DNA of 64,000 nt from Mermis nigrescens (taxonomy: Eukaryota > Nematoda > Enoplea > Mermithida > Mermithidae). A program made the translations under genes and the position numbers. This document shows, in pieces, positions 50-43,981 of this stretch (position 1 is its first letter; the number at the start of each line of letters is the position of its first letter). Location of the stretch: NCBI GenBank assembly GCA_036768485.1, contig JAVLUZ010000651.1, positions 682,001 through 746,000 of the forward strand, in the 5' to 3' direction. The notes under the pieces are model-generated. The model ran no database searches and was not told where the DNA came from. It worked only from the letters and a program-made list of their open reading frames with translations.

Positions 50-1453
50 TTAATTCGATCCTTGCTTGGAGTCCAAGCGACGTTGAATCCATTTAGCGAT
101 CCGGGCTTCTTTCTCTTTGAATTCAGGTGGCAGCATACCATATCCAGCAAACTTTTCATGAAGTAGATTTACCCAGGCGTCATAGAATTCGTGATAAGCT
201 GGTGTCCACTGATTGTGTGAGCAATAGCGAAAGTGCGACTGGAAATTTTCACGCATTTCATCAATGAGACACTGAAATTGACGTTCCACTTCTTTACCCA
301 TATCTTGTTGTGGTTGATTTTGTCGGAATTTGCTTCCGGTTGGCAGCTGGAAACATGGAATGGTACCCAACAAAGGTTTGTGTATTGCCTGGGAAATTGG
401 CGCCATTGGAAACTTGTAGGCTGGATCAGCCATTAAACTGGGCCGCCGCATTGGAGTGTATGACTGGACTTCAGCCTGTGGTTGAGGCTTTCCTTTTTGT
501 TTGTCTCCTAAGACGATAATCTTTGATTCATAAAGGCCTTTATCATCAACAATGGTAGTTTGAGTGTATGTGCTTTTAAAAACCTTTGAAACCCACATTT
601 TCAAGTGAGTTAGCTGAATAGAGGTCTTCATATTAAGGCTTCGGAATGCTGCTTGAAAACTATCATTGTGTTTGTCAACAATGGCATATATATCCATTAT
701 TAGCATAGCTCGCACAGCACCTTGAATGCAATAATGCACTGGCGCTTTTGATGAACGTGTGACGTCATGATCAAATAAATAGTGTGCCAAGCTGATGAAA
801 TCAAATTTCATTCCATCTAAGTGGAATGGAAACACTTTTTGAGCTTCTGCAAACTTCAAAACCTCTGCCAGATCAATGGTCATTCGTATTCCGTTTACTC
901 TTTTATCAGCATTATTGATAGCTTCTTCCGAGTCAGCTGTAAAATTATATCCAATGCGTACTATGCTTTCATCCAAAAGCAAACGTTGTAGTGCTTCTGG
1001 AATCTCCCCAAGAACATCAAGCTCAATAACGCACACCATTCCATCTGAGCGAGCAACAAAAATTCTTTCACAGATATGCTTTGGATTTGAGGCAACTTTC
1101 TCTTCAGCAGAAAGCTCCTTTTGTAAAATTTCAACAACTTCAGAATCCACTGCTGCTTCTTGATTCTTGGTTTCAATGAGAGCCATGTCAAAGGCTACTG
1201 CAATTATATTGGGATTCTTTGAATCATCTATGATTTTATTGACGGCCTTTTCAGTCGACATTTCATCAGGGATGCAAAAGAAACGTAGCTCGATGGGACG
1301 GCGACTAAATTGTTCAATCCATTCCTGTGTTATAGTGTCTACAAATGGTGCAAGAGGTTCTTGAGATGGCTGAGATTCATCTGTTGAGTCCTTTGGTTCA
1401 TGCTTCCAGGAAGGCGAGTGGACTGGTTCTTCATTGAGGTGTTGATCAGACAT
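50..1453 (-). CDS. ORF with degenerate RNase D/WRN-like 3'-5' exonuclease fold, downstream of integrase
   Basis: An intact 467-codon ORF, last in element E1, starting 177 bp after the integrase stop. Residues about 80-260 follow the DEDDy exonuclease fold: a strand with FDM (D89) as in Exo I, a second strand at 131-146, a helix plus IGYNFTAD (D174) as Exo II, then SLAHYLFD (221-228) and an Exo III-like helix at 241-259. Catalytic residues are incomplete: Ala91 replaces the Exo I Glu, and the Exo III Tyr and Asp appear to be Gln and Arg. It therefore looks enzymatically dead, perhaps an RNA-binding fold like that reported for EXD1. The N-terminal 40 residues are acidic and Ser/Pro-rich. The C-terminal third (about 330-467) is a Pro/Gln-rich linker and a helical tail with no family I recognise. 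The fold call rests on pattern alignment by eye. E2 carries a related ORF in the same position. Confidence 0.65.
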   Translation of the reverse strand: MSDQHLNEEPVHSPSWKHEPKDSTDESQPSQEPLAPFVDTITQEWIEQFSRRPIELRFFCIPDEMSTEKAVNKIIDDSKNPNIIAVAFDMALIETKNQEAAVDSEVVEILQKELSAEEKVASNPKHICERIFVARSDGMVCVIELDVLGEIPEALQRLLLDESIVRIGYNFTADSEEAINNADKRVNGIRMTIDLAEVLKFAEAQKVFPFHLDGMKFDFISLAHYLFDHDVTRSSKAPVHYCIQGAVRAMLIMDIYAIVDKHNDSFQAAFRSLNMKTSIQLTHLKMWVSKVFKSTYTQTTIVDDKGLYESKIIVLGDKQKGKPQPQAEVQSYTPMRRPSLMADPAYKFPMAPISQAIHKPLLGTIPCFQLPTGSKFRQNQPQQDMGKEVERQFQCLIDEMRENFQSHFRYCSHNQWTPAYHEFYDAWVNLLHEKFAGYGMLPPEFKEKEARIAKWIQRRLDSKQGSN

Positions 1454-1630
1454 TGTGTGATCTAAAAATTGAGGACACTTTGAGAAACACTGAGTTTAAC
1501 TTTACTTAAGGCGAGGTCTTAAATTATATGTGTGCACCTTTTGATGTTTTGATGTTTCTGTGGTCTTATCTTGTTTTGCTCTAAATGTTCGAACAGGTTG
1601 CATGTCAGTGGGATGTGGTGCTTTCTTGAG

Positions 1631-2992
1631 TCAATTTACATGTGCCCATTCATCTACTGTGTCCTTTACTGTGTCACGTAGTAGAACTGTTGGATATTTA
1701 ATCTGCATGATTTCATAAGGACCAATCCAAGGATGTAAAAATTTCTTTGTTTGACCTGGCTTGATAGCCGGAGAGAATTTAAATACCATGTTTCCTATTT
1801 CCAGAGCAATGTTTTTACTCCTTTTGTCATAATACTTTTTCTGTGATGCTTGAGCTTTCTGGATGTTAGCTTTTGCTATCTCCCATGCATTATACAATAA
1901 TCGAGTTGCTTCTGTGACATAATCATCAAGATCTACAGTATAAAGAGAAGGTTTTCGTGGTGTTGAGTTGTTTACTTCAACTGGTAGCCTTGGGATCCTA
2001 CCATAGAGCAAGTAGAAGGATGAGAATTTTGTAGAGTCTTGCTTAGAGGTATTATATGCGAATGTGACATATGGTAAAAACATGTCCCAATCATTATGAT
2101 TTTCATTTACATACATGGACAACATATTTGCCAATGTCTTGTTGAAACGTTCAGTGAGACCATCTGTTTGTGGATGATATGGCGTAGTTCGTACTTTATG
2201 AATGTTACACAGTATGCAGAGTTCTTGAATTAAGTCAGACATAAAATTGGTACCTTGGTCTGTTAATAACTGATTTGGTGCTCCATGCTTGAGAACAACT
2301 TCAGTCATGAGAACTTGAGCTACCTTCTTAGCTGTGATAACATTTAGTGATACAGCCATTACATATTTTGTGAGATACTCAGTGAAAACAATTATATATC
2401 TATTGCCAGATTCTCTTATTGGTAAAGGACCCAAAATATCTGTTGCAACACGATCAAAAGGTCCAGTGACTGGAATTGACACTAGATTTGCTTTTGTTGA
2501 GTGAGAAGGTGACTTTCTGTGCAGGCAAGGAGAGCAATTTTCACAACATTTCTTAATATCATTGTACATTTGTGGCCAGAAAAATCGTTCTTTTATACGT
2601 GAGTAAGTACGCTTGAAGCCAAGATGACCAGCAAATACTGAATCATGAAAATCCTTCATGATGTTTGCCTTGAGACATTGTGGTACCACTAGTAGGATAT
2701 GTTTATGCCTACTGTAAGGAGAACCAATAAAATAGAGCAAGTTTTCACAAACAGCATATTGAAATGCTACATGGCTTATTTGTTTTGCTTCTTTTTCATC
2801 ATCAGGTAAATCATATTTCATGAGATAGTTCATAACAGAGTTGCAAAACTTATCTTGCTTTTGTGCCTGCTCATTATTTGTGAGAGAGTTATATGTTTGA
2901 GACAGCCTCTTGAATGGCATTGCAGTACATGCGAGACAGAGCATCAATGTTAGTGTGTAATTTTCCAGACTTATGACACACTTCAAAGTCAT
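1631..2992 (-). CDS. Ty3/gypsy integrase (E1)
   Basis: Integrase inserts the element cDNA into host DNA. The ORF shows an HHCC zinc-binding module (H116, H123, C153, C156) and a DDE core: D185 in DILGPLP, D245 in TDQGTNF and E281 in TERFNKTL. D245 and E281 are 35 residues apart, as usual for this enzyme. Basic C-terminal sequence follows with a YDKRSKN segment and a GPYEI motif, as in Ty3/gypsy C-terminal domains. The first roughly 30 codons overlap the RNase H ORF in another frame and are probably not native; a single frameshift near 2,900 separates the two. Downstream of that point the frame is intact to its stop, so all catalytic residues are present. Confidence 0.9.
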   Translation of the reverse strand: MTLKCVISLENYTLTLMLCLACTAMPFKRLSQTYNSLTNNEQAQKQDKFCNSVMNYLMKYDLPDDEKEAKQISHVAFQYAVCENLLYFIGSPYSRHKHILLVVPQCLKANIMKDFHDSVFAGHLGFKRTYSRIKERFFWPQMYNDIKKCCENCSPCLHRKSPSHSTKANLVSIPVTGPFDRVATDILGPLPIRESGNRYIIVFTEYLTKYVMAVSLNVITAKKVAQVLMTEVVLKHGAPNQLLTDQGTNFMSDLIQELCILCNIHKVRTTPYHPQTDGLTERFNKTLANMLSMYVNENHNDWDMFLPYVTFAYNTSKQDSTKFSSFYLLYGRIPRLPVEVNNSTPRKPSLYTVDLDDYVTEATRLLYNAWEIAKANIQKAQASQKKYYDKRSKNIALEIGNMVFKFSPAIKPGQTKKFLHPWIGPYEIMQIKYPTVLLRDTVKDTVDEWAHVN

Positions 2993-3764
2993 ACTCCTGC
3001 AGTGAAAGACCCCAACAAGCTACCCGAGGTGAAGGATTAGGCTTTTTTAGGATATATTGAAGGGCTGCATGATCAGTCACTATGATGAATTTACTGTGAT
3101 ATATATAGGGACGAAAGTGTTTGATTGCCCATACAACTGCTAAAGCCTCTTGCTCATATGCAGGATAATGAGATTCAGCTTGATTGAGACTACGGCTGGC
3201 ATATGCAATAGGATGTTCCTGACCTTCAGAAACTTGAGCTAAGACAGCCCCAACTCCTTTACTTGAAGCATCAGTCTGAATAATGAATTGATTTGAGTAG
3301 TCTGGATATCTTAAAAGAGGTGCAGTTGTTAATGCTTTCTTTAATGTTTCAAAGGCTTCTATGCATTCTGCTGACCAAATATACCTAACTACTTTCTTGA
3401 GAAGAGAGTATAAAGGTGCTGCAATCAGAGAGAAATTTTTGATGAATTTTCGATAATAGCCTGCCAAGCCTAAAAAACTTTTGAGTTGATCTACATTTAG
3501 AGGATCTGGATAATTAAGAACAGATTCAATTTTCTTTTTATCAGGGCAAATTCCATCTGATGTGATCATGTGTCCTAAGTATACTACAGACTTCTGCAGG
3601 AAGTGGCATTTTTCATAGCGTAATTTGAGTCCAGCTTCTTTTAGCTTGTCCAAAACTTGAGATAAACGTTCTATATGCTCTTCAAATGTCTTACCAAAAA
3701 TTAGGATGTCATCAAGATACACCAAACAAATATTCCATTGTAAACCTGAGAGAATGAGGTCCAT
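2889..3764 (-). pseudogene. Reverse transcriptase palm/thumb and RNase H (E1)
   Basis: This piece carries the RT active site YLDD (residues 16-19), the gypsy connection region FLGLAGYYRKFI, and RNase H with TDASSKG (D165), a Glu in YEQEALAV and VTDHAAL (D231). It ends with the usual DALSR motif before the frame breaks into integrase. It overlaps the N-terminal RT piece (3,701-4,105) in another frame, so one frameshift near 3,800 splits RT in two. RT copies the element RNA and RNase H removes the RNA strand. All visible catalytic residues are intact; the break is in the frame only. Confidence 0.9.
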
Positions 3765-4366
3765 GAGCCGTTGGAATGTGGCAGGTGCATTGCATAATCC
3801 AAAAGGAAGGACACTGAATTCATATAAACCATTGTATGTGATAAAAGCTGTTTTTCCTTGTCTTCTTCAGCCACTGGTATCTGCCAGTATCCCCAGGCCT
3901 GATCGAGAGTTGTGAAAAAAGCACTATTGTTGAGAGTCTCTATGATGCCATCAATTCGTGGCAAAGGGTAACTATCCTTCTTTGTGAGTGCATTGAGTTT
4001 GCGATAGTCGACACATAATCGATAGCCTCCAGTCTTCTTGGGTACCAAGACAACAGGACTGGCCCAAGGACTTTGAGAAGGCTGTATTATTGACTTTTGT
4101 AGCATCTTCTCAATTTCAGCATCTACAGATTCTCTCTGTCAATGGGGAACTCTATATGCTTGCTGCTTCATAGGATGGGAATTATTCACCTCAATATGAT
4201 GTTTTGTAATTGCAGTTTTGCCAAGATCATCATCATTTTCAACAAATATGTTTGAGAATCTGTTAAGAACAGTTAAGAGAATTTGCTTTTGTATGTCATT
4301 AAGTTCTGGATTACCAGGAATGGAATCATATGTGATTATATGTTTATTTGTGGTGTCAGATGACAT
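3701..4366 (-). pseudogene. Reverse transcriptase N-terminal part (E1), one stop and one frameshift
   Basis: Residues such as SPWASPVVLVPKKTGGYR, VDYRKLN and the first catalytic region TTLDQAWGYWQIP are diagnostic of Ty3/gypsy RT fingers and palm. The segment 4,366-4,139 holds the protease-RT linker and ends at a TGA (4,141-4,139); the frame then continues unchanged to about 3,800. An Arg codon (CGA) is plausible at the stop. Past about 3,800 the listed frame becomes nonsense and the true frame is that of the next piece. A hAT element interrupts the gene 24 bp upstream of 4,366. Confidence 0.85.
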
Positions 4367-4389
4367 TTGAATAACACTGGATATATAAG

Positions 4390-6191
4390 TAGAGACCGGA
4401 TTTTTACGTGGAGAAAAAAGTCAATTTACATGGAAAAATACGTGGGAAATTATGTCAATTTACGTGGAAAATTACGTGGAAAAAATGCATCATATTCAAT
4501 TTTTATTTCAACTTTATAACTGAAAAGCAACAATTTCAATCAATTAGACATTTGTTGAACACAGTAATACTCAACATCTCAATATTTTCAAACGTCAAGT
4601 TGTGACGGCGGTCGGTCAACATTGATTTGTATTGCGAAAACGAACATTCAACATCCACGGAGACTAGGGGAGCAAACATGGTTTCTTAGCGAAACTGTGG
4701 GTTATCATTGGTAGCGAATTTCACAACGTCCGGATTTTTCTGGAGGCTGGCGTCAAACTAATCTTTAGCAAAACCAGTCAAAATTGAGCCTGTTTCTTTG
4801 AAAATGCGCCATTGTTCATCTTTTGTTAGGGTGCTCGATTCTAGCTTTTCGATAGCTTGAACCAAGAACTTGTAAACGGTGCAATTGAAAAGTTCATCCT
4901 TTACAATTTCGTCGTTGACCAGACGCTTGCTGATTTCGCAAGCTTTACTGTCGTCCGGAAGTTCATCCAAAAACGATTTGATTTTGTCGTAGTTTTCGCA
5001 CAAAAACGCTGCACAGCTTATTCAACTGCCCCATCGAGTAACCATAGCATCAGGTGGCAATGCTAGTCCTCCTGTGGTTTCTTTGTAAAGTTGAATGCGT
5101 GCCGGGCTTTCAAAAGAACTTTTCGCATTGAGCCAATAAATTCGTTTGCGTTACTATATTCGTTACGGACCAATTTGCACATGTGGTGCAACGAATGAGC
5201 CAAACAAGTAACATGTAAAAAATGGAAATAACGCCTTCAGATTTGTCACAGCAAGCACCATGTAAGCAGCTTGATCGCTCACAACTGAGATAACTTTGTC
5301 GTCCTGTATGCCGCCAGGCCACAAAACCCCGCGAGGCGTCAATCACAGAACGCATCACAGTAGAGTTGTTGGCTTTTTCCAGATTGTACATCTTCAACAA
5401 CATCGGCTTGATTAATTTTCCATTGAGAGGCATAACCAGAACATTGAAGACAAATCTTTGAAGCGCATCTGTTGTTTCATCCACGATGAAACAAGCGTTA
5501 CTATCGCCAACAGCCAATCGAATTTTTCGATTATTTCATCAAACACAGGTTTAATGTAATTTTTGCGTAAAGTACTTTTGTCTGGGATCTTCCTTTCGGT
5601 GTATTTGGCCAAAAAATTGCATAACGGCTCACTATTAACTTTGAACAATGGTATACCGGATTGAATAAAGGCACGCGTCAAATCAGATTCAAACTTTTTA
5701 TTTTGGCGAGTTGTTCATCTGCTTTCTGAAAACTAGATGCCAGGAACGTTTGCTGCGACGATTTCGATTTACGTTTGGCCGCCAATTCTCAATGCTTCAG
5801 TGTTTTTAGGTGTTGTTCGATCGCTTGATTCTGATGATTCAGGTCAACTTTTAGCACCGTATCGCAAACATCACACTTGATAATAGATCCATCTGACACA
5901 ATGAAGTCGGCTTTGTACTTTTGAGCTAACGATTTGATTTTAGTGGCACCAAGTTTGGACATTATTAAACTATTAAATCAATTATCTGTAAAGAAAAGTG
6001 TTAAAATACGTGGAAATTTTCAGAAATAAGAAAATACGTGGAAGTACGTGGAAAAAGGCAAAATACGTGGAAATACGTGGGGGAAAAATACTCCTAAGGC
6101 TCTAAAAATGCGTTTTTCTGACGTTTTAGAGTCCGCTGATTCCGAATCAAGTCTCAAAAATTACGTGGCCCACGTAAAAATCCAGTCTCTA
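4390..6191 (-). mobile_element. hAT-type DNA transposon inserted in E1 pol
   Basis: The termini are inverted: TAGAGACCGG at 4,390 and CCAGTCTCTA ending at 6,191; the match continues with one mismatch to about 20 bp. The 8-bp target duplication TATATAAG lies at 4,382-4,389 and 6,192-6,199, as expected for hAT. Both subterminal regions hold many ACGTGG motifs (4,398-4,480 and 6,000-6,090), typical of transposase-binding repeats. The E1 coding frame is open on both sides of the insertion, which supports a late, simple insertion. The element encodes a broken transposase on the minus strand. Confidence 0.9.
4758..5961 (-). pseudogene. hAT transposase with BED-like zinc finger, CGGBP1-like group
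   Basis: Translation from the ATG at 5,961 gives a short N-terminus with CDVC followed by HLKTLKH, a C2H2 BED-type finger. A TGA at 5,791-5,789 follows, then basic sequence (AAKRKSKSSQQTF). Further pieces carry RAFIQSGIPLF (5,681-5,412), FIVDETTDAL (5,517-5,110) and a short C-terminal helical part (5,003-4,758). These match the general hAT transposase layout of the CGGBP1-like group known from insects and other animals. At least three frame breaks are present, so it is inactive. The C-terminal dimerisation region looks shortened. Family assignment is by motif recognition. Confidence 0.75.
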
Positions 6192-6433: not shown

Positions 6434-7180
6434 TCAATGTTTTGACCAAGTGTGCAATTCCCCTTTTTCTTGAGGTACATATAACTTTTCAATTAGTGGC
6501 ATTGCATGCTGTCCAAATTGAGCTATGCCCTGCCTATAGTGCAGATGAATACTTGGGAATCGGCAAAGATAATCATTACCAATGAGAAAATCAGTAGGTG
6601 GGTTAGGTGCTCTGAGATATTCTGGCGGATTGCTTTGATTTGCTCTTTTAAATGAAATGCATAACCATACCATGCCTAAAACAGGTGATTTTGTGCCACA
6701 TGCTTGAGTTATATTTGTTAATGGAGATGCATGGAGACAGAGTTTGAGCTGTTCTTGAATCGATTGCTTAATAAGTGTAACTTCTGTGCCACTGTCAAGA
6801 ATAGTGACACATTCATGACTCAAATTTTCTGCTGGATTTTGTATTTGAGCAATTACACGAGGCAGATTGTATTTACCTGTTTCAATATTATTTGTAACAA
6901 CGTTACATTTTTGCTCATTTATAAAAGGTGTGAATGCTTGAGCAAGAAGATTTGTAAGTGGTTGATTGGCTTCTAAATTTTTAGGATTTTTATCAAACAG
7001 TTCTACATTTTGTGTCAATTTTTCCTTTTTTATTTGAGATTCTTCTTTTTCAGTCACTTTACATTCACTTAAATTCTTACGTGCCTGCTTGCAGCAAGAA
7101 AAACATTTCAGTGACCGCTTGAGACCAAAATACAAATATGTGATGTAACCTATCACAAAAATTATTATGAGGAAGACAAT
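6434..7180 (-). CDS. Envelope membrane anchor and cytoplasmic tail fused to aspartic protease (E1)
   Basis: One open frame joins two functions. After the TRIM junction at 7,181 it begins with about 25 hydrophobic residues (VFLIIIFVIGYITYLYF), then a basic Cys-rich stretch (KRSLKCFSCC), the layout of a glycoprotein anchor and palmoylatable tail. About 100 residues later comes the retropepsin active site LDSGTEVTLI (DSG at ORF residues 136-138) and the later FLIGNDYL motif (205-212). The ORF stop is at 6,434, but a second frame continues with protease-RT linker features to 6,200, so a frameshift lies near 6,440. The ORF's first seven codons (7,201-7,181) are TRIM sequence. The fusion places the protease directly downstream of an envelope rather than a Gag. 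High confidence for protease; moderate for the anchor being native to the glycoprotein. Confidence 0.8.
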   Translation of the reverse strand: MVFLIIIFVIGYITYLYFGLKRSLKCFSCCKQARKNLSECKVTEKEESQIKKEKLTQNVELFDKNPKNLEANQPLTNLLAQAFTPFINEQKCNVVTNNIETGKYNLPRVIAQIQNPAENLSHECVTILDSGTEVTLIKQSIQEQLKLCLHASPLTNITQACGTKSPVLGMVWLCISFKRANQSNPPEYLRAPNPPTDFLIGNDYLCRFPSIHLHYRQGIAQFGQHAMPLIEKLYVPQEKGELHTWSKH

Positions 7181-7701
7181 TGTAACGTGGCAGCCGGCCA
7201 ACCACGTTACTCAGTGAGCAAAATTTTACCCGCACCGGTTTCCCGGATCTTCCGCATTAACACGCGTGTGTAGTACTAACCAACTACTCGGGCTCTTGCT
7301 CACTTCTGCGCAATATATCCATTAAGAATATGTTTCACAACAACATCAACCCCACGGGTTTAACATCAAAGTAGACAATTTCCACTGATCCGTAGCTTCC
7401 TGCTACATTCCTCAGCCTTAAGAGGAGAACCGCGCAGACAACCTGAGTTCATCAAGCTCAGAGACCTCCAATTGTAACGTGGCAACCGGCCAACCACGTT
7501 ACTCAGTGAACAAAATTTTACCCGCACCGGTTTCCCGGATCTTCCGCTGTAACACGGCGTGTGTAGTACTAACCGACTACTCAGGCTCTTGCTCACTTCT
7601 GCGCAATATATTCATTAAGAATATGTTTCACAGCAACATCAGCCCCACGGGTTTAACATCAAAGTAGACTATTTCCACTGATCCGTAGCTTCCCCGCTAC
7701 A
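7181..7701. mobile_element. TRIM-like miniature LTR element, copy 1
   Basis: Two direct repeats, each starting TGTAACGTGGC and ending GCTACA, lie at 7,181-7,407 and 7,473-7,701 (227 and 229 bp) around a 65-bp internal piece. The ends are TG...CA, and a 4-bp duplication CAAT flanks the whole (7,177-7,180 and 7,702-7,705). This is the structure of a terminal-repeat retrotransposon in miniature. It codes for nothing. It sits exactly between the glycoprotein ectodomain and its membrane anchor. Confidence 0.85.
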
Positions 7702-7705
7702 CAAT

Positions 7706-7972
7706 TACATTAATAATGAGTTGTATTGGTGCATGAAGTAGTTTTCCTATCACGCTACCTGATCCAGTCGTACCATCTATTACTACTTGGTCCAAAGCTT
7801 CACCAGAAGCTTTATGCGCTTGTTCTATAATACTACCAGTTCCTTTCAAAAAATGTGATATTACTGACGGATCAAGGAGAGATCTGCTGAGTAATTTAAG
7901 AGGCGCTCAAGCTGTGATTCTAATACTGGTATGCGTGATAAATAGTGCCTGATTAGAGCAGCTGATTCATAG
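7706..7972 (-). pseudogene. Envelope-like glycoprotein, membrane-proximal piece between two TRIMs
   Basis: Reading the minus strand gives YESAALIRHYLSRIP, a frame break near 7,875, then a Gly/Ser- and hydrophobic-rich run ending HAPIQLIINV directly at TRIM copy 1. The frame matches that of the anchor on the other side of the TRIM. A helical stem followed by a GS-rich pre-membrane segment is typical of class III fusion proteins. Confidence 0.55.
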
Positions 7973-8489
7973 TGTAACGGGGCGCCGCCTCCCACCGTTA
8001 CGTGAGCAAAATTTTACCCGCACTGGTTTCCCCGATCTTCTGCTCTGATTCGCGTGTGTAGTACTAATCGACTACTCGGGCTCTTGCTCACAACTGCGCA
8101 AAGTATTGAATAATATTGAGAAACAATGAAACATCAACGTCACGGGTTAAACTTCAAAGTAGGCATTTCAAGCCGTGTTGTAGCACTCCTGCTACACTCC
8201 TCCCCTCTAGGAGAAAGCGTAAGTGCAGACAACTCCAGAGAACGAACTCTGGGACCTCCAATATGTAACGGGGGCGCTGCCTCCCACCGTTATGTGAGCA
8301 AAATTTTACCCGCACCGGTTTCCCGGATCTTCCGCTCTGATTCGCGTGTGTAGTACTAATCAACTACTCGGGCTCTTGCTCACAACTGCGCAAAGTATTG
8401 AATAATATTGAGAAACAATGAAACATCAACGTCACGGGTTAAACTTCAAAGTAGGCATTTCTAGCCGTGTAGTAGCACTCCTGCTAGCA
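7973..8489. mobile_element. TRIM-like miniature LTR element, copy 2
   Basis: Repeats at 7,973-8,196 and 8,264-8,489 start TGTAACGGGG and end GCTACA or GCTAGCA, around a 67-bp internal part. A 4-bp duplication ATAG lies at 7,969-7,972 and 8,490-8,493. The core (CAAAATTTTACCCGCACC, then CTACTCGGGCTCTTGCTCAC) is shared with copy 1 but the outer parts differ, so they belong to two subfamilies that inserted independently. The two internal parts share GCAGACAAC and GACCTCCAAT. Confidence 0.85.
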
Positions 8490-8591
8490 ATAGGTCTCAT
8501 AATTTTTTGATACAATAGGAGGCGCATCAAATGTGTAAGGTGTCTATTTTTTATGCCATGCAACCTCAAGGGGAATATGACTTACGTGAGT

Positions 8592-9104
8592 TCAGCCATT
8601 ATCTGAGTACCAAAGTCCATTAATTTTATGAATGCCTGATTCTTTGTGATAACAATCTACAATAGGTGCAGTGTGTATGAGGTCATGCGAACCAGGTATG
8701 ATGAACCAGATTTTATCTTTGAGTTTTACTGGTACAAAGGCGTAACAAGTATTTCCAACAGTGTAATTCCAAAAAATTATATCACGGTAAGCAGTATTAC
8801 ATTCCGAAATAATGAGTGCTTCTGCAAATTTAGCTGTGATGTTTTGTCTCTTTAGAAGAATTCGTGCACCTAATGTTGGATCAAGGCGTAAAATTTGCCA
8901 AATTAATTGAAGATAACGATCTGCTGCTTTACATAGTTCTATCCAAATGTCACGAAAATTCTGAATTTCAAATTCTACTATCTTAGTATATAGGTATTGC
9001 AATTTCGCATTAATAGGATCAGACTCAGCTGAGCCTGCATTATTAAAATTTAAATCATGTTCCTTTTGAGTGCTTGAAAAATTTGATGCCAAATCAGGCT
9101 TCAT
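8592..9104 (-). pseudogene. Envelope-like glycoprotein, C-terminal ectodomain piece
   Basis: A 170-codon open stretch with a helical beginning (LQYLYTKIVEFE), RLDPTLGAR, ISEC, FWNYTVGNTCYA, IPGSHDL and VDCYHKE. This is the best-preserved part of the glycoprotein. It ends at a TGA; the same frame then continues about 30 codons with one further stop to TRIM copy 2. Confidence 0.65.
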
Positions 9105-9210
9105 GCATAGTATCTTAACAAAAAACTAGAATTTGTAGGTCATTTTCTGATTTTTCCTGGCAATTTTGACTTTGATCGCAATTTTCTCAAAAGAGCTAAA
9201 AATGGATCTA

Positions 9211-9621
9211 TCACCTTTTGGCATGGCGCCCACGATATGTAGGCTTCTTAATCGTGAATGCTCCTTGTATAGCTTCAATAGTAACATAATTTTGTGCGAC
9301 GTGTGCCTCATATATTCCTGTGTCAATGTATGGACAAAAAGACTTGAGTGAATTATTTTTCCAAATTACTGTGTATCGAGATGTTAAGCAACTATTATGA
9401 GAAGCAAAGCAACCACTTAGATCTCCTAAGTCACTAAAAATAGTTTTTCCGTCATAAGTAGATACTGTACCTTCTTCTATCATCATATTCTGACTGATTT
9501 CACAGTGATCGTAGCAGCAGTATTTAAATTTTACATTAAGCACGTTTTTCGGTAGACCGTAATTGGTCAGAGAATTTTTTGAGAGGTGTATTATTGAAAG
9601 TTTTGTGTAAATACGAGTCAA
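9211..9621 (-). pseudogene. Envelope-like glycoprotein, central piece
   Basis: This piece contains the paired Cys motif YCCYDHC, EEGTVSTYDGKTI, SDLGDLSGC and a later FCPYIDTGIY, the strongest family marks in the gene. The order and spacing fit the central ectodomain of chuvirus-like glycoproteins. The first and last roughly 20 codons look out of frame. About 100 bp of stop-containing sequence separates it from the next piece. Confidence 0.65.
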
Positions 9622-9636
9622 TGCATTCTTTTTCGG

Positions 9637-10083
9637 TCACTGCGAATTGTTTATTTGTGTCAGCAACAATACCTTTAGAGAGAAAAATCCATAATTTGTG
9701 CAAACAGTTCGAATTTTCAGGTAACATTTGATACCCTTAACTTGTATAGGATGTGATCGCGGTGTAAAGAGTTTGGCTTTTATCTTTTTTATAGCTTTAT
9801 CATACAGCTCGGGCATGATACATTCGACTTCTTGTGGAACAGATACTGCATGCCCGTTAGCATTAGTTCCGCAAATATAGTATTCATTAGAAAAATTCCC
9901 AGACAAAGCAACATGAAAAACTACAGCAGGAAACAGTAGGGCAAGAATCGTTAGCATTTGATTATTCTTAGCGTTTTTGAGTATTATTGAGAGAATGACA
10001 ATCAAAAATATCATCATGGTGTAAAATATTTGGGAGAGTGGAACCCCACAAACGGTATACTGTAGAAGGCCGTGGCATACCAA
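9637..10083 (-). pseudogene. Envelope-like glycoprotein, N-terminal piece
   Basis: Two hydrophobic runs (MMIFLIVILSII, then LTILALLFPAVVF) look like a signal or signal-anchor. They are followed by the first ectodomain Cys (YYICGT) and further Cys in VECIMP and IKCYLKIRTVC. The ORF opens at a TTG, so the native start is unresolved; an ATG lies about 22 codons in. The frame shifts near 9,680, after which about 60 codons continue in the ORF 9,727-9,536. Confidence 0.6.
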
Positions 10084-10508
10084 GAGAGTCCATAAAAATC
10101 AACACCTCCTGAGGAAAACACAATCCCAAATTTTTGAAGCATTTTTCGGTGGCCACCGGTAGTACTTTGTGCAGGCGGCGGACGCCTATCACCTTCACAA
10201 CCTCTACCTTCCGGAATTAATCCAGGGTTACACAACAAAGAGTCAGGGCAGCATTTTTGAACTTCGTAGGTGGGGCCGGACAGTAGACCAAATGTCCTCA
10301 TGGAAGGTATACCGACTTGAGAGAACACTTGCGCAAGTTCAGGATCCTCATCTGTGTAAGGTGTCTCTGCCTGCTCAAGCTGGTCAGAATATTCATTCAT
10401 ACCCTCTCTGTCATCTTCCGCTTGCCTTTGCGCTGCTATGTGATGCGAAGAACGTTGCTTGTCTGCCCACTGAACGGTTTTATATTGTGAATATTTTTTT
10501 GTCGACAA
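10014..10508 (-). CDS. Unrecognised leader ORF upstream of the envelope-like gene
   Basis: A 164-codon ORF beginning MSTKKYSQYK, with an acidic middle (EDDREGMNEYSDQLEQ) and a Cys/Pro-rich later part. Only about the first 120 codons look protein-like; after about 10,140 the ORF overlaps the glycoprotein frame. It could be an N-terminal extension of the glycoprotein or a relic of Gag, but it has no CCHC knuckle or capsid motif. I do not recognise it. Confidence 0.35.
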   Translation of the reverse strand: MSTKKYSQYKTVQWADKQRSSHHIAAQRQAEDDREGMNEYSDQLEQAETPYTDEDPELAQVFSQVGIPSMRTFGLLSGPTYEVQKCCPDSLLCNPGLIPEGRGCEGDRRPPPAQSTTGGHRKMLQKFGIVFSSGGVDFYGLSWYATAFYSIPFVGFHSPKYFTP

Positions 10509-10750
10509 TTCGGACTATGCCGATAAGTTCAGGAAAACAAAACAAGTCGAGGTTGAGAACGTTTTATTATTGAGATTGCGAATTATACGAATCGTGAAAT
10601 AAGAGAGAGAGCAGCGCAAAGCGAAATCAAAGCAAAAACGAGCCCGACTGAATGCAATGCAACTACACAAATTATTTGTAGGACTTGGATGAGTGGGTTG
10701 AGCGCATGCGTCAGTAAAAGTTCGGAGATCTTTATCTAAGTGTGCCAAAA
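10509..10750 (-). promoter_or_regulatory. Putative E1 leader or LTR R/U5 region
   Basis: On the minus strand an arthropod-type initiator TTCAGTC lies at 10,652-10,646 and an AATAAA signal near 10,570-10,563, about 80 nt downstream. That is a plausible R segment. No second LTR copy is in the window, so the LTR boundaries cannot be confirmed. Confidence 0.3.
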
Positions 10751-13700
10751 GCTTATCGCGAGCAATAGTTTTTATGAAAAATATTCACAAATATCAAAGG
10801 TTATGTGTGGCATGAGTTTTTATGCTATAAATGTGATGTTTCGGAGAAAGCATGTGATGCGCTCATAAAAACAATAAAGAATTCGCTAAATGAGAAGTTA
10901 TATAGTATAGTGAACGAGATAAGTGACGAATAACTTTATTAGCTTCATTACATATTCATTAAAACTTGTAAATTGATAGATGCTTTTTTATGGGTCACCA
11001 ACCCTGCATGTAAATAAAATGACCAATTTTAAAAACTTGTACGCTTCAAGAAAGGGTCAGTAGAAAATATAAGGGTGAGGCGAGAGGGGCCTCTCCTCAT
11101 AGGAACACGGCATTCAAAAGCCATCGAATTTTCTTACATAAAGCCAAACACTGTAAGCTGTAATCTATAGTCTGTTTCACATAACCTCGTGCATAAATTA
11201 TAAGTTTTCAATGATATTAAGCCGAGGATTACGATAATTATATATCAGATCAATGCTATAATCGCAATCTGTCAGCTTATTGTCGGAGATAGGCTTAACA
11301 TTTATGAACGAAGTTGTGTGAAACAGACTATAGTTTAATTTAATTTACTACCTACTTTGTTTGTTAGTGCACGCATAGTAATACTGGCTTTTTATATGGT
11401 TTGAAAGTTTTTTGTAAAGCGTATTTGATTTTATCATTCAGCATCTCAGATGTGAAATTTAGTAGCTTTATCATTGCTGCCTGCCAACTCAATAATGGCG
11501 CCCGAATGGACTCAAATTTTCGACCATCAATCAGATCGTTTTTTTGTATACGCAAATTCTCATCTCCGCAAAATTTATAAGCTGAGCAATAATTCTAAAA
11601 ATCGTCGTATAGCCTAGGTGAATTAGCAATGGACGTCGTTTTCAGCGCTCAGTGAAGATTTTTTAAGGTTTTTTAACTTTAATCAGAACATGATACATGG
11701 CTAATTGGAAAGAGCATAAAATTTTCGAGCTGTCTGTATTCCGTCTAAGGTTCGTTTAATATAGGTACGCCTAGATTTAAGAAGTCATATTATCTAACTA
11801 TTTTAACTACAAAAAATTGCGAATAATATTTGTTTCACTTTATCTGACATGTTGCAACATCAACGCCTTTTTTAAAGTTGCGTAATTTGTTTGGAAAAAT
11901 TTCATACATACCTGCATTCCGCTCCGCAATCTTAGGGACGCCTGCCAATTTCGTTATTGCATGCTACAAAGTCATATCAATTTTTTGCGACATATTCTTT
12001 TACGAAAAAATTGCATTTTTCTAATCATTGGTTACTTTCTGATCAGTTAGCAAGAATCGGGTTACCATAGACCAAAATGATTATAAAATCTCGGGTTCCC
12101 GACATCGATTTACTTAGAAACATATTTTTTTAAAAGAAAAATCTCTTTCTGGCCACTGGTCACGTTTTGACCGCTCATCATCAAAACAAGCGAATAAAAT
12201 TGAGGTGAAATTCAGAAATGCCGCCCGTCTATCATCGAAAAACGGAGTATAAGTTACATTGATATGAAATATCCTATGTTATGACATAAAGTGAGTAGAA
12301 GGTAGGGACAGGTTCGCCACACTGATATAATTATGCCTTAACGACTTCGCCCATCAATTCCTTCTCGTTGCAAAAACTTCAATTTTATTATCGCAAACCA
12401 ATAAAAAAATAACAAAACGCATGAGTTTGAACAAAAAAACCATTTCAGGTAAATAAATAAATGTACTAATGACACCATGACCCTTGTACGAATAATAATG
12501 CCAAAAACGAGTAAAAATAAACGCACATTAACGCAGCGGCGTTACTATTATACTTTACGCTAGGTTGCTGACAGAAGAGCCTCTGTCGATCTACATAAGC
12601 CGAAATCGCTTTGTTACTTACGATAAATATGTAATAAAACGAAATTTGCAATGACGAAACAGCTCTAGCAATGTTTTGATAACCAGTGAAAATTTTTTGA
12701 AATTTTTCAAAAAAAAACAGAAATTTAGGCCATTTCATCACGCTCGATATTGACCGTGTTTCGGCATTCCGCAAGCCAAGATAATTTTCCGACCACGTAA
12801 CCACTCGGCTCTAATGACAAAATTTTTTTCAAAAACTTTCTTTCGCAGTACAGGAAAGGAATATTCGGTGAAAAAGTCGAAAACTGTTATTTTTCTTGTT
12901 TTTACCCGACGTTTTCAAGCTCGATTGTTTGAGAAAGTTCTTTTCGAATCCAGCGAATTCAAGCGCAAAGGAAATTTTTGGTTAAGACAGAAAATAATCA
13001 CACTACTACCTATATTTGAAGCTGTTCTATCAATCATCTTGCTTCTCCCCATTCGACTTTCTGAGCACGACTTATAACGCAAAATATTCATAAATTCGAG
13101 CCTTGACAACCGCGAACAAATTAAGTAATAGTATTCATAACTCATCCACCGTTTACAGAAATATATAATTCTTTGCCTATCAAAAAAATGCCGACGCGTG
13201 TCGAATTGCAAATCATTTTAATTTCAGCGTGCACTTTCCGCCATCAGAACTGAAATAGGCAAAATCAAGCAACAAACAAAAATACATCTAAAATAGCAAT
13301 CTAACGGCTGCGTCGATTGATTTTATAAATGAAAATTTTTCCGGCTTCAATGAATCTACCAGTGATTTTTTTTCAGATCAGCAGAAATTTCATAGAGGCA
13401 ATAATAATGACGATAGTCCGAAAGTTTGTAAACAAGTTTGAGCGACATTCCTAGTGAATTGCGTACAAAATTTTTTTAACGCGAAAAATCCGACGAAGAT
13501 GGTTTAGTTAAAAAGTCTAAATGAATGAAAATTTTGTATTCATAAAAAAATATAACATACTTAAGGAAAATGGCACCAAATCGTAGTAAAAACAAAAAAG
13601 TTTGGCAGAAATCTGACTTCAATGAAAAAGGCAAAAAACTTATTTCGTTTTATAATTGACGGATGAAATAACATAACGCGCTTAGTGGAATGCGCTCTAA

Positions 13701-13842
13701 TTGATATAGGTACTTATTTTACGGAACCATACATGATCTTGGGGGATTTAAGCCCCCTAACCAGAGAAAATTTTTACCCGCACAAAAATTTTTCCACCCC
13801 CTTCCCCCACCCCAGAATTGGCATTTTTTGAAATTTCCCAAA
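10751..13842. other. AT-rich non-coding stretch
   Basis: Apart from the MITE at 11,166-11,332 no gene, RNA or repeat structure is supported. The ORFs here are short, low-complexity and overlap on both strands. A short C-rich stretch with a GGGGG/CCCCC hairpin at about 13,741-13,760 precedes the LINE and resembles debris of the M1 MITE family. Confidence 0.5.
11166..11332. mobile_element. MITE, TATAGTCTGTTTCACA family, copy 1
   Basis: 167 bp with inverted ends TATAGTCTGTTTCACA and TGTGTGAAACAGACTATA. The TATA ends would fit a TA target and a Tc1/mariner origin. A second copy with the same interior (TCAATGCTATAATCGCAAT) is at 46,950-47,106. Confidence 0.75.
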
Positions 13843-14778
13843 AATTTTTATGTTACCTGTTTCCAACCTATTTCGGATCGAATCGCAACCTTAGAATTTG
13901 CTGGCACTATTCCGACTGTCTTAATTGGAGTTTATGCCCCAACGGAAATGAGCGACGACGTTGATAAGGACTTGTTTTATGAAAATCTACAACAGACATT
14001 GGATTCATTTCAAGATGGAAATAATTTAATTATTCTTTGTGGGGACCTGAATGCGCAAACCGGCGTAAATCGTCTTGGATGGGAGAAAACTCTTGGCCCC
14101 TTTGGATGCGGCAGCCTCAATGACAACGGTCTGCGCCTACTATCATTTGCAAACTTCAATAGAATGGTAGTGTGCAACACGTGGTTTCAACACCCTATCA
14201 ATCACAGGCACACCTGGTTTTCGAATAACAGAAGAGATAAAAGTATGCTTGACTACTTCCTGGTGCATAAGCGGTTCCACAGTGCTATCCATGATGTTCG
14301 GGCAATGCGCGGAGCTTCGATCGGATCAGATCACCACCTGGTCAGGGCCAAATTCCGATTGCATCTGAAGGCGCACAACAATATTCGCCCCACAGCTACC
14401 CTCGATTACTCGCACTTATCCGACCCCAACAGTCAGGCCAAATTTCAACTTCTTTTACAAAATAAATTTTCCCCACTATTAGCCAACAATGTTGATGAAA
14501 ACTGGAACTCAACAAAAAACGCCATTATCTACTCACTTAATGAAATTTGTCCCAAAAAACGACGAAAAATAAAACCTTGGATCTCAGATGATACTCTAAA
14601 ATTAGTTGAAGAACATGCAAAAATCAAGAATATTAATCACAAGCTGTACCTTTTCCTCAATAGACAAATTAAACGGCAGCTTAAGACGGATAAGGACGCT
14701 TGGTGGAATGTGAAAGCCCAAGAAATGGAAATAGCCAGCAAGAACCATGATTCGCGCTTACTTTACAGCATCCTGTGA
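13828..14778 (+). pseudogene. LINE apurinic-type endonuclease domain, N-terminally truncated
   Basis: The domain nicks target DNA to prime reverse transcription. Visible motifs are GVYAPTE, CGDLNAQTG (the GDFN-like motif), HTWFSNN, MLDYFLV and the catalytic GSDHHLV. The N-terminal strand with the catalytic Glu is missing. The first five codons are flanking DNA. The piece ends at a TGA (14,776-14,778), after which the same frame stays open for 37 codons into the RT domain, so the stop is a later point mutation. Confidence 0.85.
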
Positions 14779-16560
14779 AGTTGTAATGGAAAGTTTAAAG
14801 CAACGAGTTCAAACCTCAAAGATCACCATGGCAACCCCATCAAATCACTAACGGGTAAACTAGAAAGATGGAAAGAACATTTTAGCCAATTGCTTAACCG
14901 CCCACACCCCACAAGCCTAGACAAAAGGCTGATGGAGAACGTGGATCTGAAATTTTCAAGCACAATTAATGATCATCCTCCAAGTGAAGAGGAAATCAGA
15001 ATATCAATAAAAAGACTCAAGAACCGGAAGGCACCAGGTGTGGACAACATCCCTGCTGAAGCATTAAAAGCTGGAGGAGAGGCAATAGTCAAACAACTAA
15101 AAGGCGTATACTCGACCATCTGGAACAAAGGCACAGTGCCTCAAGACTTTAAGGACTCAATTATCGTACCAATTCACAAAAAGGGAGACCCAGCTACCTG
15201 CAAAAACTATAGAGGAATAAGCCTGTTAGCAACATCTGGAAAACTTCTGACCTCTATAATCCGATCCAGACTACTCAGTGTTAGAGAAACTAACTGCAGG
15301 GAAGAGCAGGCTGGTTTCAGGCCTGGAAGAGGTTGCACCGACCAAATATTCACACTTAGGCAACTAACCGAATCGCGCCTACGCTGTAAAAAGGACACAT
15401 TCTTGGTATTTGTGGATTTTGCATGCGCATTCGATAGCATAGACCATTCGTCCTTATGGTGCGCCCTCAAAAATGAATCAATCCCGCATGCCACACTTAG
15501 TATTCTCAAGGCCTTCTACGACGGTGGAAGGAGCAGGGCAAAATATTTGGGAAATGTGTCCTCACCATTCTCAATTACCACTGGCGTTAAACAGGGATGC
15601 ATTATTTCGCCTATGTTGTTCAACGTGACTATGGACTGGATTCTCAGAAAAACTTTTGACGACATGCCAGGTGTACAAGTCGGAGCTAATTTGTCTCTCA
15701 CTGATTTAGTATACGCCGACGACATTGTATTTTTTGCCGAAACAGCTCAAACCGCACAAAATACCTTGAATGCGTTACAAGTGAATGCCAACAAACTCGG
15801 CCTGACAATAAACAGCGAAAAAACTAAATTTATTCTCACGGGCACACAACCGGCCATATTACAACTTGATGGCAAACCAATCGAACGGGTGGATGCATTT
15901 AAATATTTGGGATCGGTTATTGATAGTGGACAAATAGTAGCGACTAGCGACATCAAAAACCGCATTGGGAATGCCATGTCAGCATTCACTTCACTAAAGA
16001 AGTGTTTGTGGAACCAAAAAGACATTACCATCACAACAAAAATGAGAATTTTTAATGCTTCCATCCGGACAATTTTGATGTACGGCTCTGAGTCGTGGAC
16101 TCTGCTCAAAAGCGATATGCACATATTAGAACGTTTTCAACTTCGATGTCTTCGCAGCATTTTGCACATAAATCTACGAGACTGATGGGAGAATGAAACT
16201 GTGCTGCAAGTATGTAAAAACCAAACCAGTATCGAACTCTACTTAAAGCGACAGCGGCTCAGGTGGTTTGGACATGTCTGCCGCATGAACAACACCCGAC
16301 TACCCTATCAGTTAATTAACTCCAAGCGGCCCACGGGGTGGAAAATCTCTCGAGACGCCCCTAAGAAAACATGGTTGACACAAGTGGCACAAGATGTTCA
16401 GCCGCTCCACTTCTCAATCATTGATGCCCAACAAGCAGCCTTGAACCGCGATCAATGGCGTGCTGTAATCCGTGATACACTGCCTTTGGCCGCCACAGCT
16501 CAACGGTCGTTGCCCTACCAACGTCATTGAAGCTTATGGTGTTTAAGTCAAGTCAAAGTC
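13843..16560 (+). mobile_element. 5'-truncated LINE, RTE-like
   Basis: Coding similarity starts inside the endonuclease and runs through RT to a short 3' UTR that ends in AAGTCAAGTCAAAGTC, the kind of short tandem tail seen in RTE elements. The 5' truncation is typical of target-primed insertion. It abuts E2 coding sequence at about 16,560, so it may have inserted in or replaced the 5' part of E2; no matching E2 sequence was seen upstream of 13,843. Confidence 0.75.
14779..16530 (+). pseudogene. LINE reverse transcriptase and C-terminal domain
   Basis: RT copies the element RNA at the nicked site. Motifs include RKAPGVDNIPAE, IVPIHKKGD, NYRGISLL, EEQAGFRPGRG, FVDFACAFDSID (first catalytic Asp), TGVKQGCIISP and the active site YADDIVFF. 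The C-terminal part has KRQRLRWFGHVCRM, common in RTE-like and related LINEs. The frame runs from the endonuclease with only two stops, both TGA (14,776 and 16,183). All RT catalytic residues are present. The RTE assignment is by overall motif style and the 3' tail. Confidence 0.9.
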
Positions 16561-24898: not shown

Positions 24899-25686
24899 TT
24901 TACAAGTTCGACGTACTGAACTTTTGGAACTCTGCGACAGCGTCGACCTCGACCAGCAGCTTTTCATCAATTTTTTCGTTTTTCGTCCTGATGTGGATTC
25001 CAGGACTTTGTGTATTGTTTATTTCTTGTGTATTTTTTCTCTTGTCATTTTTCTCGTGCTGTAAATTTTTTCTTTGACGGTGCTCGTATTTTTCCCCGTT
25101 ATCTCGCATAATTTGCCATTTTTTCTCGTTTTACCTCTTGTTTTAATTCGTCAGTGACTTTAATTTTTTTTTGCTCAGCATAATTTTGCCTTATCATTCC
25201 ATGTCTTAAATTTTCTTGTGTTCAATTAGCGGTGTTACTACTATGGTACCTTAACGCTTTAACGGACAAGGGGTTAATTTATACCCAATCTACAAAATTT
25301 TTCAAATCAAAATTTTTCTCATTACCTGGGGACTGAAGGAGGCTACTTGGGCAGCATAATCGAGTATTATGCTATGTTGTCCAAGACCGGAGTTCATCAT
25401 TACTCGGGCAACAATATAGTTATCCCTAGCGCCATTGTGAGCGTTGCTCGAGAGTTTTCCTGAGTGCGAACGAGGTCATGCGTTGACCGGTTATCGATAT
25501 TTGTTATTTTTTTTTGTTCTTTTTATTTTCGTTTTTCACGTTTGCTCAGGATGAGGCGTTGCGGACGCCAGAGTAGAGGCGTTGCAAACGCCAGAGAGCC
25601 GAGTTGTAGAGCATCGCCGACGCTAGTGCCGTTGATGGTACCCCCGAAAAAATTCTCCACGTCGTGTCAAATTTTTTTCTATATGT
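24899..25686 (+). other. E2 3' untranslated region
   Basis: T-rich, non-coding, lying between the last E2 ORF and the purine tract. The ORFs seen here have no protein-like composition. Confidence 0.6.
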
Positions 25687-43967: not shown

Positions 43968-43981
43968 ATCAAGGAAATTTA

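What the first reader, a model, noticed from the sequence alone, without database searches (positions are those of the whole stretch)
6434..10083. Envelope-like glycoprotein fused upstream of the retroviral-type protease
Seen: one open minus-strand frame runs from a hydrophobic anchor and Cys-rich tail into a DSG aspartic protease, and just upstream are pieces of a Cys-rich ectodomain. Known: envelope genes in LTR elements normally lie 3' of integrase; chuvirus-like envelopes are reported mainly in BEL/Pao elements. Inference: E1 has the order env-protease-RT-integrase, with the envelope where Gag should be. This could be a capture that replaced or follows Gag, and would need a distinct expression or processing route.
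Basis: partly seen in the sequence, partly recalled or inferred. Interest (0 to 1): 0.9.

Follow-up and report, generated by a model that had tools for sequence, protein, structure and literature searches.

The report
Envelope inside a retrotransposon's Gag-Pol protein
An invertebrate genome carries many copies of a virus-like jumping gene whose cell-entry-type envelope protein is built into the middle of its one long polyprotein, between the shell protein and the enzymes, instead of being a separate gene at the end; the copy in this window is a broken one that has also lost its shell part.

Summary
The minus-strand frame 6434-7210 joins an envelope membrane anchor and tail to a retropepsin. 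Upstream pieces are a chuvirus-type (Monjiviricetes) fusion glycoprotein (PF24664, E 3.8e-11). There is no element junction at 7.1-7.2 kb: two TRIM-like and one hAT-like insertion, each with target-site duplications, split one colinear Ty3/gypsy-type element; their sites are empty in a close relative (L033). Env did not replace Gag: the window copy lost about 1.35 kb (leader, capsid, CCHC) by internal deletion. In relatives from the same genome Gag comes first. Four examined copies, and one independent database protein, have one open frame of 2,397-2,930 codons in the order Gag-Env-protease-RT-RNase H-integrase. LTR pairs up to 100% identical and near-identical multicopy families point to recent activity. 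A hydrophobic segment lies just before the ectodomain and another between ectodomain and protease, so I infer a flavivirus-like threading: Gag in the cytosol, Env in the ER lumen, Pol in the cytosol. This is inference; no RNA or protein data exist here. The gene order has a precedent: giant planarian Burro elements (Arkhipova and Yushenova 2019). This is a compact, multi-lineage variant, apparently outside flatworms.

The parts
10500..10952 (-). 5' LTR of element E1 (TG...CA type)
   Evidence: 98.2% identical over 453 nt to the L033 LTR, which is itself paired with a second LTR in L034 at 94.3%
10500..10501 (-). deletion point where leader and Gag capsid/CCHC region are missing
   Evidence: L033 aligns on both sides but its bases 7202-8548 have no counterpart in the window
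10041..10505 (-). segment between Gag CCHC and the Env signal
   Evidence: 95% identical at protein level to residues 413-567 of the L033 Gag-Env frame
9364..10038 (-). Env signal segment and N-terminal ectodomain
   Evidence: tblastn to L033 residues 571-795, 79%; hydrophobic segments in the matching L033 place
8490..9360 (-). Env ectodomain; PF24664 match at about 8604-9014
   Evidence: PF24664 E 3.8e-11; tblastn to L033
7973..8489 (.). TRIM-like insertion 2 with its own LTR pair, TSD ATAG
   Evidence: site empty in L033
7702..7972 (-). Env stem, with a frame break inside
   Evidence: tblastn to L033 residues 264-354, 92-94%
7181..7701 (.). TRIM-like insertion 1 with its own LTR pair, TSD CAAT
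   Evidence: site empty in L033
7124..7180 (-). Env transmembrane anchor
   Evidence: residues 11-29 of ORF 6434-7210; hydropathy peak at the same place in relatives
6566..6814 (-). retropepsin (LDSG motif)
   Evidence: weak Pfam gag-asp_proteas/Asp_protease_2; stronger in some relatives such as L037, E 2.3e-5
4390..6191 (.). hAT-like insertion with 8-bp TSD TATATAAG
   Evidence: site empty in L033; class assigned from TSD length and inverted ends, no transposase Pfam hit in the two pieces looked at
2889..4389 (-). reverse transcriptase and RNase H (broken frame)
   Evidence: RVT_1, RT_RNaseH
1631..3019 (-). integrase
   Evidence: Integrase_H2C2 E 7.8e-22, rve E 5e-8
50..1495 (-). ORF 3' of integrase, possibly a degenerate 3'-5' exonuclease
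   Evidence: DNA_pol_A_exo1 only E 0.085 (L033 copy E 0.022), none in L037 and L043 at E 10; alignable with ORFs at the same place in L037, L041, L043, L047

Best explanation
E1 is a decayed copy of a family of about 10-11-kb Ty3/gypsy-type LTR retroelements that encode one polyprotein, Gag(CA-CCHC)-Env-protease-RT-RNase H-integrase, followed by a separate 3' ORF. The Env is a chuvirus-type (class III by family) fusion glycoprotein. Shown: order, single frame, LTRs, near-identical copies, 16-Cys ectodomain, flanking hydrophobic segments. Inferred: the segment between CCHC and ectodomain works as an internal signal sequence, so that Gag stays in the cytosol, the ectodomain enters the ER lumen (signal peptidase freeing its N end), the anchor stops transfer, and protease-RT-integrase lies in the cytosol on the Env tail, to be released by the retropepsin in the particle. 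Env would thereby carry Pol to the budding membrane and give the particle an entry protein.
For: Pfam order Gag, zinc knuckle, PF24664, retropepsin, RT, RNase H, integrase in single frames of L041 (2397 aa), L043 (2429), L047 (2490), L049 (2930) (in L043 the CCHC motif is by pattern; retropepsin scores are weak in L041 and L047) and P0001 (2499 aa); Gag-Env-PR in L035 and L037, Env-PR-RT in L033 and L039, Env-PR in L045. All 30 of 30 loci of the anchor-protease search, the window copy included, have Env 5' of the protease match, and 7 of the 68 PF24664 places, picked without reference to protease matches, give 7 of 7 with protease/RT after Env. In the ten fetched copies Env matches lie only 5' of the protease. 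In six lineages plus P0001 (7 of 7) a hydrophobic segment lies just before the ectodomain and one 107-148 residues before the protease motif; the ectodomain is 521-536 aa with exactly 16 Cys in 7 of 7. L037, L041, L047 and P0001 have no Met within 21 residues on either side of the start of the signal core. Third codon positions differ most in 14 of 14 comparisons. LTRs 94-100% identical, 4-bp TSD in two copies, PBS- and PPT-like sequences; six places encode the L047 anchor-protease piece at 99-100%.
Against: No RNA, protein or topology data. L033, L035, L043 and L049 do have a Met at or within 4 residues of the start of the signal core, which could start an Env of its own. Sequon excess does not single out the ectodomain: 49 against 31 shuffled in the ectodomain, 76 against 53 in Pol, 58 against 55 in Gag. 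No 2A motif and no known step that would set a Gag excess over Pol. Furin-like sites occur in 3 of the 10 scanned frames, none between signal and anchor. The two-segment picture is not exact: the segment before the ectodomain is double in L033, L037 and L039, L049 has more upstream, L035 and L037 have one near the frame start, L045 one after the protease motif. The structure prediction of the window piece failed (mean pLDDT 40.8), so class III is by Pfam family only. Two of four copies with readable flanks show no TSD.
Confidence: 0.7

Rival explanations
1. Same gene order, but expression uses splicing or internal initiation: some mRNAs skip env to give Gag-Pol, others start near the Env signal to give Env-Pol.
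For: A single-frame retrotransposon with distinct RNA pools is known (BARE, title and start of abstract in the listing). L033, L035, L043 and L049 have a Met at or within 4 residues of the start of the signal core. The best donor-like 9-mer between CCHC and signal is the same in L035 and L041.
Against: In 6 of 6 frames the best donor and acceptor in the expected regions are not unusual for the frame (share of background windows scoring as high: donors 0.17-0.96, acceptors 0.19-1.0; donor weights recalled, crude). L037, L041, L047 and P0001 have no Met near the signal core (nearest upstream 28, 34, 89 and 22 residues). In the five full frames Env has no stop of its own before Pol.
Confidence: 0.27
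2. Env is kept as a membrane anchor or trafficking module for intracellular particles rather than as a fusogen.
For: Fusion in cis to Pol would hinder a free Env trimer (inference); no conserved furin-like site.
Against: 16 Cys and many invariant residues of the ectodomain kept over lineages 31-55% identical to the first row suggest conservation of the whole fusion protein, not only of an anchor.
Confidence: 0.15
3. One reading: Env replaced Gag.
For: No capsid or CCHC Pfam match in the window pieces upstream of env.
Against: L033, 95-98% identical over the aligned stretches, has Gag, and the window has a clean gap there; Gag precedes Env in all four full frames and in P0001.
Confidence: 0.02
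4. Chance junction of two elements (an env from one, pol from another) or an assembly artefact.
For: The window region is full of nested insertions.
Against: Insertions have TSDs and empty sites in L033; many other loci and an independent database protein show the same order.
Confidence: 0.01

Closest known systems
Burro giant gypsy-like LTR retrotransposons of planarians (Grohme et al. 2018, not read; Arkhipova and Yushenova 2019, PMC6431247, section 7 and passages read)
   Same: One polyprotein with Gag at the N end, env in frame between Gag and protease, then RT-RNase H-integrase; env hits fusion glycoproteins of arthropod and fish mononegaviruses; dUTPase-like region between protease and RT (here only a trace, E 0.098 in L041).
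   Different: Burro exceeds 30 kb, with a 4,873-aa ORF1 carrying MATH/TRAF, BIR, ankyrin, BCL2-like and SUMO-like parts; here about 10-11 kb, 2,397-2,930 aa, none of those Pfam domains at E 0.1 in seven frames scanned (L035, L037, L041, L043, L047, L049, P0001), one CCHC, a separate 3' ORF, and a host whose COX1-like copy does not read by the flatworm code. Kinship with Burro was not tested: no Burro sequence was at hand.
Anakin, BEL/Pao elements with chuvirus glycoprotein in mosquitoes (PMC7642597, passages read)
   Same: Retroelement with a chuvirus-type glycoprotein.
   Different: BEL/Pao family; Gag-PR-RT-RH-INT are listed as the element's own domains and Gly as an added part; the passages that I saw do not describe an in-frame Gag-Env-Pol chain.
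Bdelloid rotifer LTR retrotransposons Juno, Vesta, TelKA (PMC5408684, passages read)
   Same: Retrovirus-like LTR families with an extra ORF3 that in some is a DEDDy exonuclease, and a dUTPase between PR and RT.
   Different: The env-like gene (paramyxovirus F type, TelKA clade only) is an ORF3, not part of a Gag-Env-Pol chain.
Flavivirus-type polyproteins (recalled)
   Same: Works-like only: cytosolic capsid, internal signal, lumenal glycoprotein, anchor, cytosolic enzymes in one chain.
   Different: No homology; positive-strand RNA viruses.

Membership tests
Ty3/gypsy (Metaviridae-like) LTR retroelement | Order PR-RT-RNase H-integrase with gypsy-type domains | tested here: met
Ty3/gypsy (Metaviridae-like) LTR retroelement | LTR pair, TG...CA ends, short TSD | tested here: met
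   LTR pairs in 5 of 10 fetched copies (L033, L037, L039, L043, L047), short partial matches in 2 (L041, L045), none found in 3 (L031, L035, L049); 4-bp TSD in 2 of 4 with readable flanks
Ty3/gypsy (Metaviridae-like) LTR retroelement | Gag with capsid and CCHC | tested here: met
   L033, L035, L037, L041, L047, L049 by Pfam (several CCHC hits under the cut-off); L043 capsid by Pfam and CCHC by pattern; lost in the window copy
Ty3/gypsy (Metaviridae-like) LTR retroelement | Place among named gypsy clades by RT phylogeny | not tested
   No set of named reference RTs was at hand; a small tree of 9 rows left 5 of 6 inner branches open
Chuvirus-type (Monjiviricetes) fusion glycoprotein | Match to the family model above the curated cut-off | tested here: met
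   window piece 42.1 bits against 27; relatives 41.5-61.4 bits
Chuvirus-type (Monjiviricetes) fusion glycoprotein | Class III fold | tested here: inconclusive
   model of the 177-aa piece pLDDT 40.8
Chuvirus-type (Monjiviricetes) fusion glycoprotein | Close relatives among free-standing glycoproteins | tested here: not met
   no hit at E 0.001 among 4593 candidates of 0.55-1.75 times the length; none confirmed in viral contigs (97 pattern matches)
Burro elements | env in frame between Gag and protease in one ORF | tested here: met
Burro elements | Giant size with MATH, BIR, ankyrin or BCL2-like parts | tested here: not met
   full frames 2397-2930 aa, no such Pfam hits at E 0.1; the 606-aa extra stretch of L049 has no Pfam hit at E 10
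Burro elements | Common descent by pol phylogeny | not tested
   no Burro sequence available

The most novel reading that the evidence does not exclude
A widespread class of compact invertebrate retroelements or retroviruses has adopted a membrane-threaded Gag-Env-Pol polyprotein: an internal signal and the Env anchor pass the chain through the ER membrane, so every Pol molecule is made tethered to the Env tail. Entry protein and enzymes are then made one to one and brought to the budding site together, without subgenomic env mRNA. With Burro in planarians and these elements in a genome that reads like a non-flatworm, the arrangement would be either old or repeatedly gained.
Probability: 0.48. 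Interest if true: 0.78.

Novelty: new variant of a known kind. Interest (0 to 1): 0.62.

Why it matters
Retroviruses and env-bearing LTR elements, as I know them, keep env as a separate gene 3' of pol, so that Env enters the secretory pathway and Gag-Pol stays in the cytosol. A single chain that holds cytosolic Gag, a lumenal glycoprotein and cytosolic enzymes breaks that rule and makes definite, testable predictions about topology, processing and stoichiometry. It also offers a compact relative or parallel of Burro, in several lineages of one genome with recent copies, and shows that chuvirus-type glycoproteins are held by gypsy-type elements as well as by BEL/Pao.

Tried and rejected
Env replaced Gag: rejected. 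Junction of two elements: rejected. Separate env start or splicing: crude splice scans gave no support, but several lineages have a Met at the signal core, so left open; my first wording, that no lineage has a nearby Met, came from a scan that stopped at the core start and was mended, for which I lowered the main confidence from 0.72 to 0.70, raised the rival from 0.25 to 0.27 and lowered the novel case from 0.50 to 0.48. 2A recoding: none in nine frames. Sequons as a proof of lumenal topology: not discriminating. Structure prediction of the window piece: failed, so no fold search was made. Solved-structure search with the window Env piece: only three weak hits, E 0.35 or more, to chains not named as glycoproteins. 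Protein search with the 258-aa anchor-protease piece: no hit, candidates being limited to 0.55-1.75 times its length. Free-standing relatives of the Env: none. RT piece in viral contigs: none. NCBIfam: nothing useful. Rfam on the window: nothing. RT tree: too few rows and open forks. 3' LTR of the window copy: not in the 701 bases beyond the window; the element is followed to 44 nt before the LTR place of L034, then other repeats begin. L031, the other close copy, holds duplicated env/gag stretches and was compared by BLAST only.
Full report
What is in the window. On the minus strand an element that I keep calling E1 runs from its 5' LTR (10952-10500) to beyond the window start. In transcription order it has a remnant between Gag and Env (10505-10041), the Env signal and ectodomain (10038-8490), the Env stem (7972-7702), the anchor (7180-7124), a Cys-rich tail, retropepsin (6814-6566), RT and RNase H (4389-2889), integrase (3019-1631) and a further ORF (1495-50). 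The Env piece 8592-9125 matches PF24664 Monjiviricetes_fusion at E 3.8e-11. The other Env pieces have no informative Pfam match alone and are recognised by their alignment to a relative.

Insertions. Two insertions of 521 and 517 nt (7181-7701, 7973-8489), each with its own pair of LTR-like repeats and a 4-bp target duplication, lie inside env; I call them TRIM-like. A third of 1802 nt (4390-6191) with an 8-bp duplication and inverted ends lies in pol; I call it hAT-like from those marks. In L033, a copy 95-98% identical over the aligned stretches, all three sites are empty. Hence env, protease, RT and integrase of E1 belong to one element, and the 7.18 kb edge is not a junction of two elements. 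TRIM1 with one target duplication is 525 nt, and the phases on both sides agree.

Gag. The window pieces upstream of env have no capsid or zinc-knuckle match. L033 has them (Retrotrans_gag E 6.9e-7, Ty3_capsid E 7e-6, zf-CCHC E 2.7e-4), upstream of env in one frame with its start, and the window lacks L033 7202-8548 (1347 bases: part of the leader and Gag residues 1 to about 413) while aligning on both sides. So Gag was deleted in this copy.

Relatives in the genome. The window's genome (524 Mb, 860 contigs) has 147 scored matches, of 354 candidates, to the anchor-protease piece; 31 of the 147 lie in open frames of 2,000 aa or more (my count from that table; some may be haplotype or assembly duplicates, and most were not examined further). 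I fetched ten copies. Pfam on nine of the ten (L031 was only compared by BLAST) finds env before protease in all nine; L041, L043, L047 and L049 hold everything from capsid to integrase in one frame of 2397, 2429, 2490 and 2930 aa. L033 has one stop inside env between two frames, and L035, L037, L039 and L045 have frame breaks elsewhere. In the ten copies, about 15 kb each, Env matches lie only 5' of the protease. All 30 of 30 loci, L001 being the window copy itself, have Env-like sequence 5' of the protease. That sample was chosen by the anchor-protease query, so I also searched the genome with PF24664: 68 scored matches of 775 candidates; 0 of 14 control genomes, a weak control since the eight that another call names are prokaryotes. 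I fetched 7 of those 68, two with mid-sized frames and five others: 7 of 7 have protease or RT matches after Env (in L054 after a gap of 1.7 kb, in L053 across a frame change). The other 61 were not fetched.

Independent case. A protein search with the Env-protease region of L041 gave P0001 (2499 aa, source lgn, one contig of 9,296 nt; 39% identity over 99% of the region) and P0002 (1854 aa, gypsy type without an Env match). P0001 has the same order, with capsid, CCHC, PF24664, anchor, retropepsin, RT, RNase H and integrase. RTs of the Env-bearing lineages are 56-78% identical to each other and 39-51% to the Env-less P0002 and to E2 of the window (17853-18836), in agreement with, but not proving, a single Env-bearing clade; the tree of nine rows was unresolved.

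Element hallmarks and activity. Paired LTRs were found in 5 of 10 copies: L033 456 bp 94.3%, L037 about 947 bp 99.3%, L039 about 947 bp 99.4%, L043 484 bp 100%, L047 492 bp 100%. Four-base duplications ATTA and AATC flank L037 and L039; none is seen for L033 and L047, and L043 begins at its contig end. Sequences like primer binding sites and polypurine tracts lie where expected. Six places carry the L047 anchor-protease piece at 99-100% identity. So the family has probably moved recently.

Env under constraint. Six lineages, 31-55% identical to the first row, align over the whole Env. The ectodomain is 521-536 aa with exactly 16 Cys in 7 of 7 lineages with P0001. In divergent pairs the third codon position differs most in 14 of 14 comparisons of Gag, ectodomain and tail-protease; synonymous sites are near saturation, so dN/dS, defined in 10 of the 14 at 0.09-0.42, is rough. 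Between L037 and L039 the Env shows 4 synonymous and 7 non-synonymous changes, too few to judge.

How it most likely works. In each lineage a hydrophobic segment precedes the ectodomain (double in L033, L037 and L039) and another follows it, 107-148 residues before the protease motif. L037, L041, L047 and P0001 have no Met within 21 residues on either side of the start of the first segment's core, which speaks against a start codon of Env's own there; but L033, L035, L043 and L049 have a Met at or within 4 residues of it, so an own start is possible in those. Splice-site scans and a search for 2A found nothing notable. I therefore propose an internal signal, a lumenal ectodomain, a stop-transfer anchor and cytosolic Pol on the Env tail, with signal peptidase and retropepsin cutting the chain. 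The order and the segments are shown; membrane threading, cleavage and entry function are inferred. The sequon test gives no easy proof: the excess over shuffles is 1.6-fold in the ectodomain, 1.4-fold in Pol and 1.05-fold in Gag. How the element keeps Gag in excess over Pol is open.

What is known. Arkhipova and Yushenova 2019 (PMC6431247, section 7 and passages read; [quoted passage not shown] The principle is therefore published. Different here: compact size, no BCL2, BIR, MATH or ankyrin hits, direct PF24664 matches, an extra 3' ORF, several lineages with intact frames, and a host that seems not to be a flatworm: in a COX1-like copy (L059) 3 of 11 AAA codons (283, 284, 338) align to Lys of a solved COX1 in motifs that I recall as conserved, against the flatworm code as I know it; the copy lies in a nuclear contig and carries TGA codons. 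PMC10084718 (passages) reports no clear capture of such glycoproteins by gypsy or copia elements. Anakin (PMC7642597, passages) is BEL/Pao. Ten paper searches, whose listings I saw, showed me no compact Gag-Env-Pol element of this kind; most subscription papers are not in that library.

The 3' ORF. ORF 50-1495 aligns with ORFs at the same place in four lineages and has only sub-threshold matches to DNA_pol_A_exo1 (none in L037 and L043). DEDDy exonuclease ORFs are known from bdelloid elements (PMC5408684, passages). I leave it as a possible parallel.

Noticed in passing
window 16531-25064 (+): A second gypsy-type element (E2) with retropepsin, RT and H2C2 integrase and, 3' of pol, several long ORFs (20739-21614, 21712-22845, 22584-23837, 23699-24607) without any Pfam match; RT 43-51% identical to the Env-bearing lineages, and no membrane anchor was apparent by eye before its protease.
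   Followed up: partly
window 7181-7701 and 7973-8489: Two related TRIM-like mini-elements (LTR-like pairs of about 220-230 bp around about 65-70 bp of inside) sit about 270 bp apart in the same env, about 76% identical to each other.
   Followed up: partly
window 50-1495 (-); L037:8914-9999, L041:8896-9792, L043:7946-8956, L047:8834-9619: An alignable ORF 3' of integrase in several lineages, with a faint 3'-5' exonuclease signal in the window and L033 copies only.
   Followed up: partly
L049:6675-8492 (-): A 606-aa stretch between the Gag zinc knuckle and the Env signal with two further hydrophobic segments and no Pfam match at E 10.
   Followed up: partly
L041:5673-6395 (+), L043:4667-5332 (+): Between protease and RT a trace of dUTPase (E 0.098) in L041 and of spumavirus A9 protease (E 7e-4, just under its cut-off) in L043.
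   Followed up: no
L031: The other close copy of E1 has env and gag stretches repeated in tandem upstream of its protease.
   Followed up: no
window 13705-16185 (+): LINE-type ORFs, an endonuclease-like one by eye and an RT one (RVT_1 E 2.1e-41 for 14779-16185), end just upstream of E2.
   Followed up: no
window 43167-44015 (-): ORF that looks to me like a Penelope-type end with a GIY-YIG-like stretch (recalled motif; no Pfam match).
   Followed up: no
window 11161-11337: An imperfect palindrome of about 180 bp (73%), a relative of which lies at 46949-47105.
   Followed up: no
L059 (G000:C61:36162539-36163888): A COX1-like copy inside a 48.8-Mb contig, reading with TGA as Trp and AAA as Lys: probably a nuclear copy of mitochondrial DNA.
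   Followed up: partly
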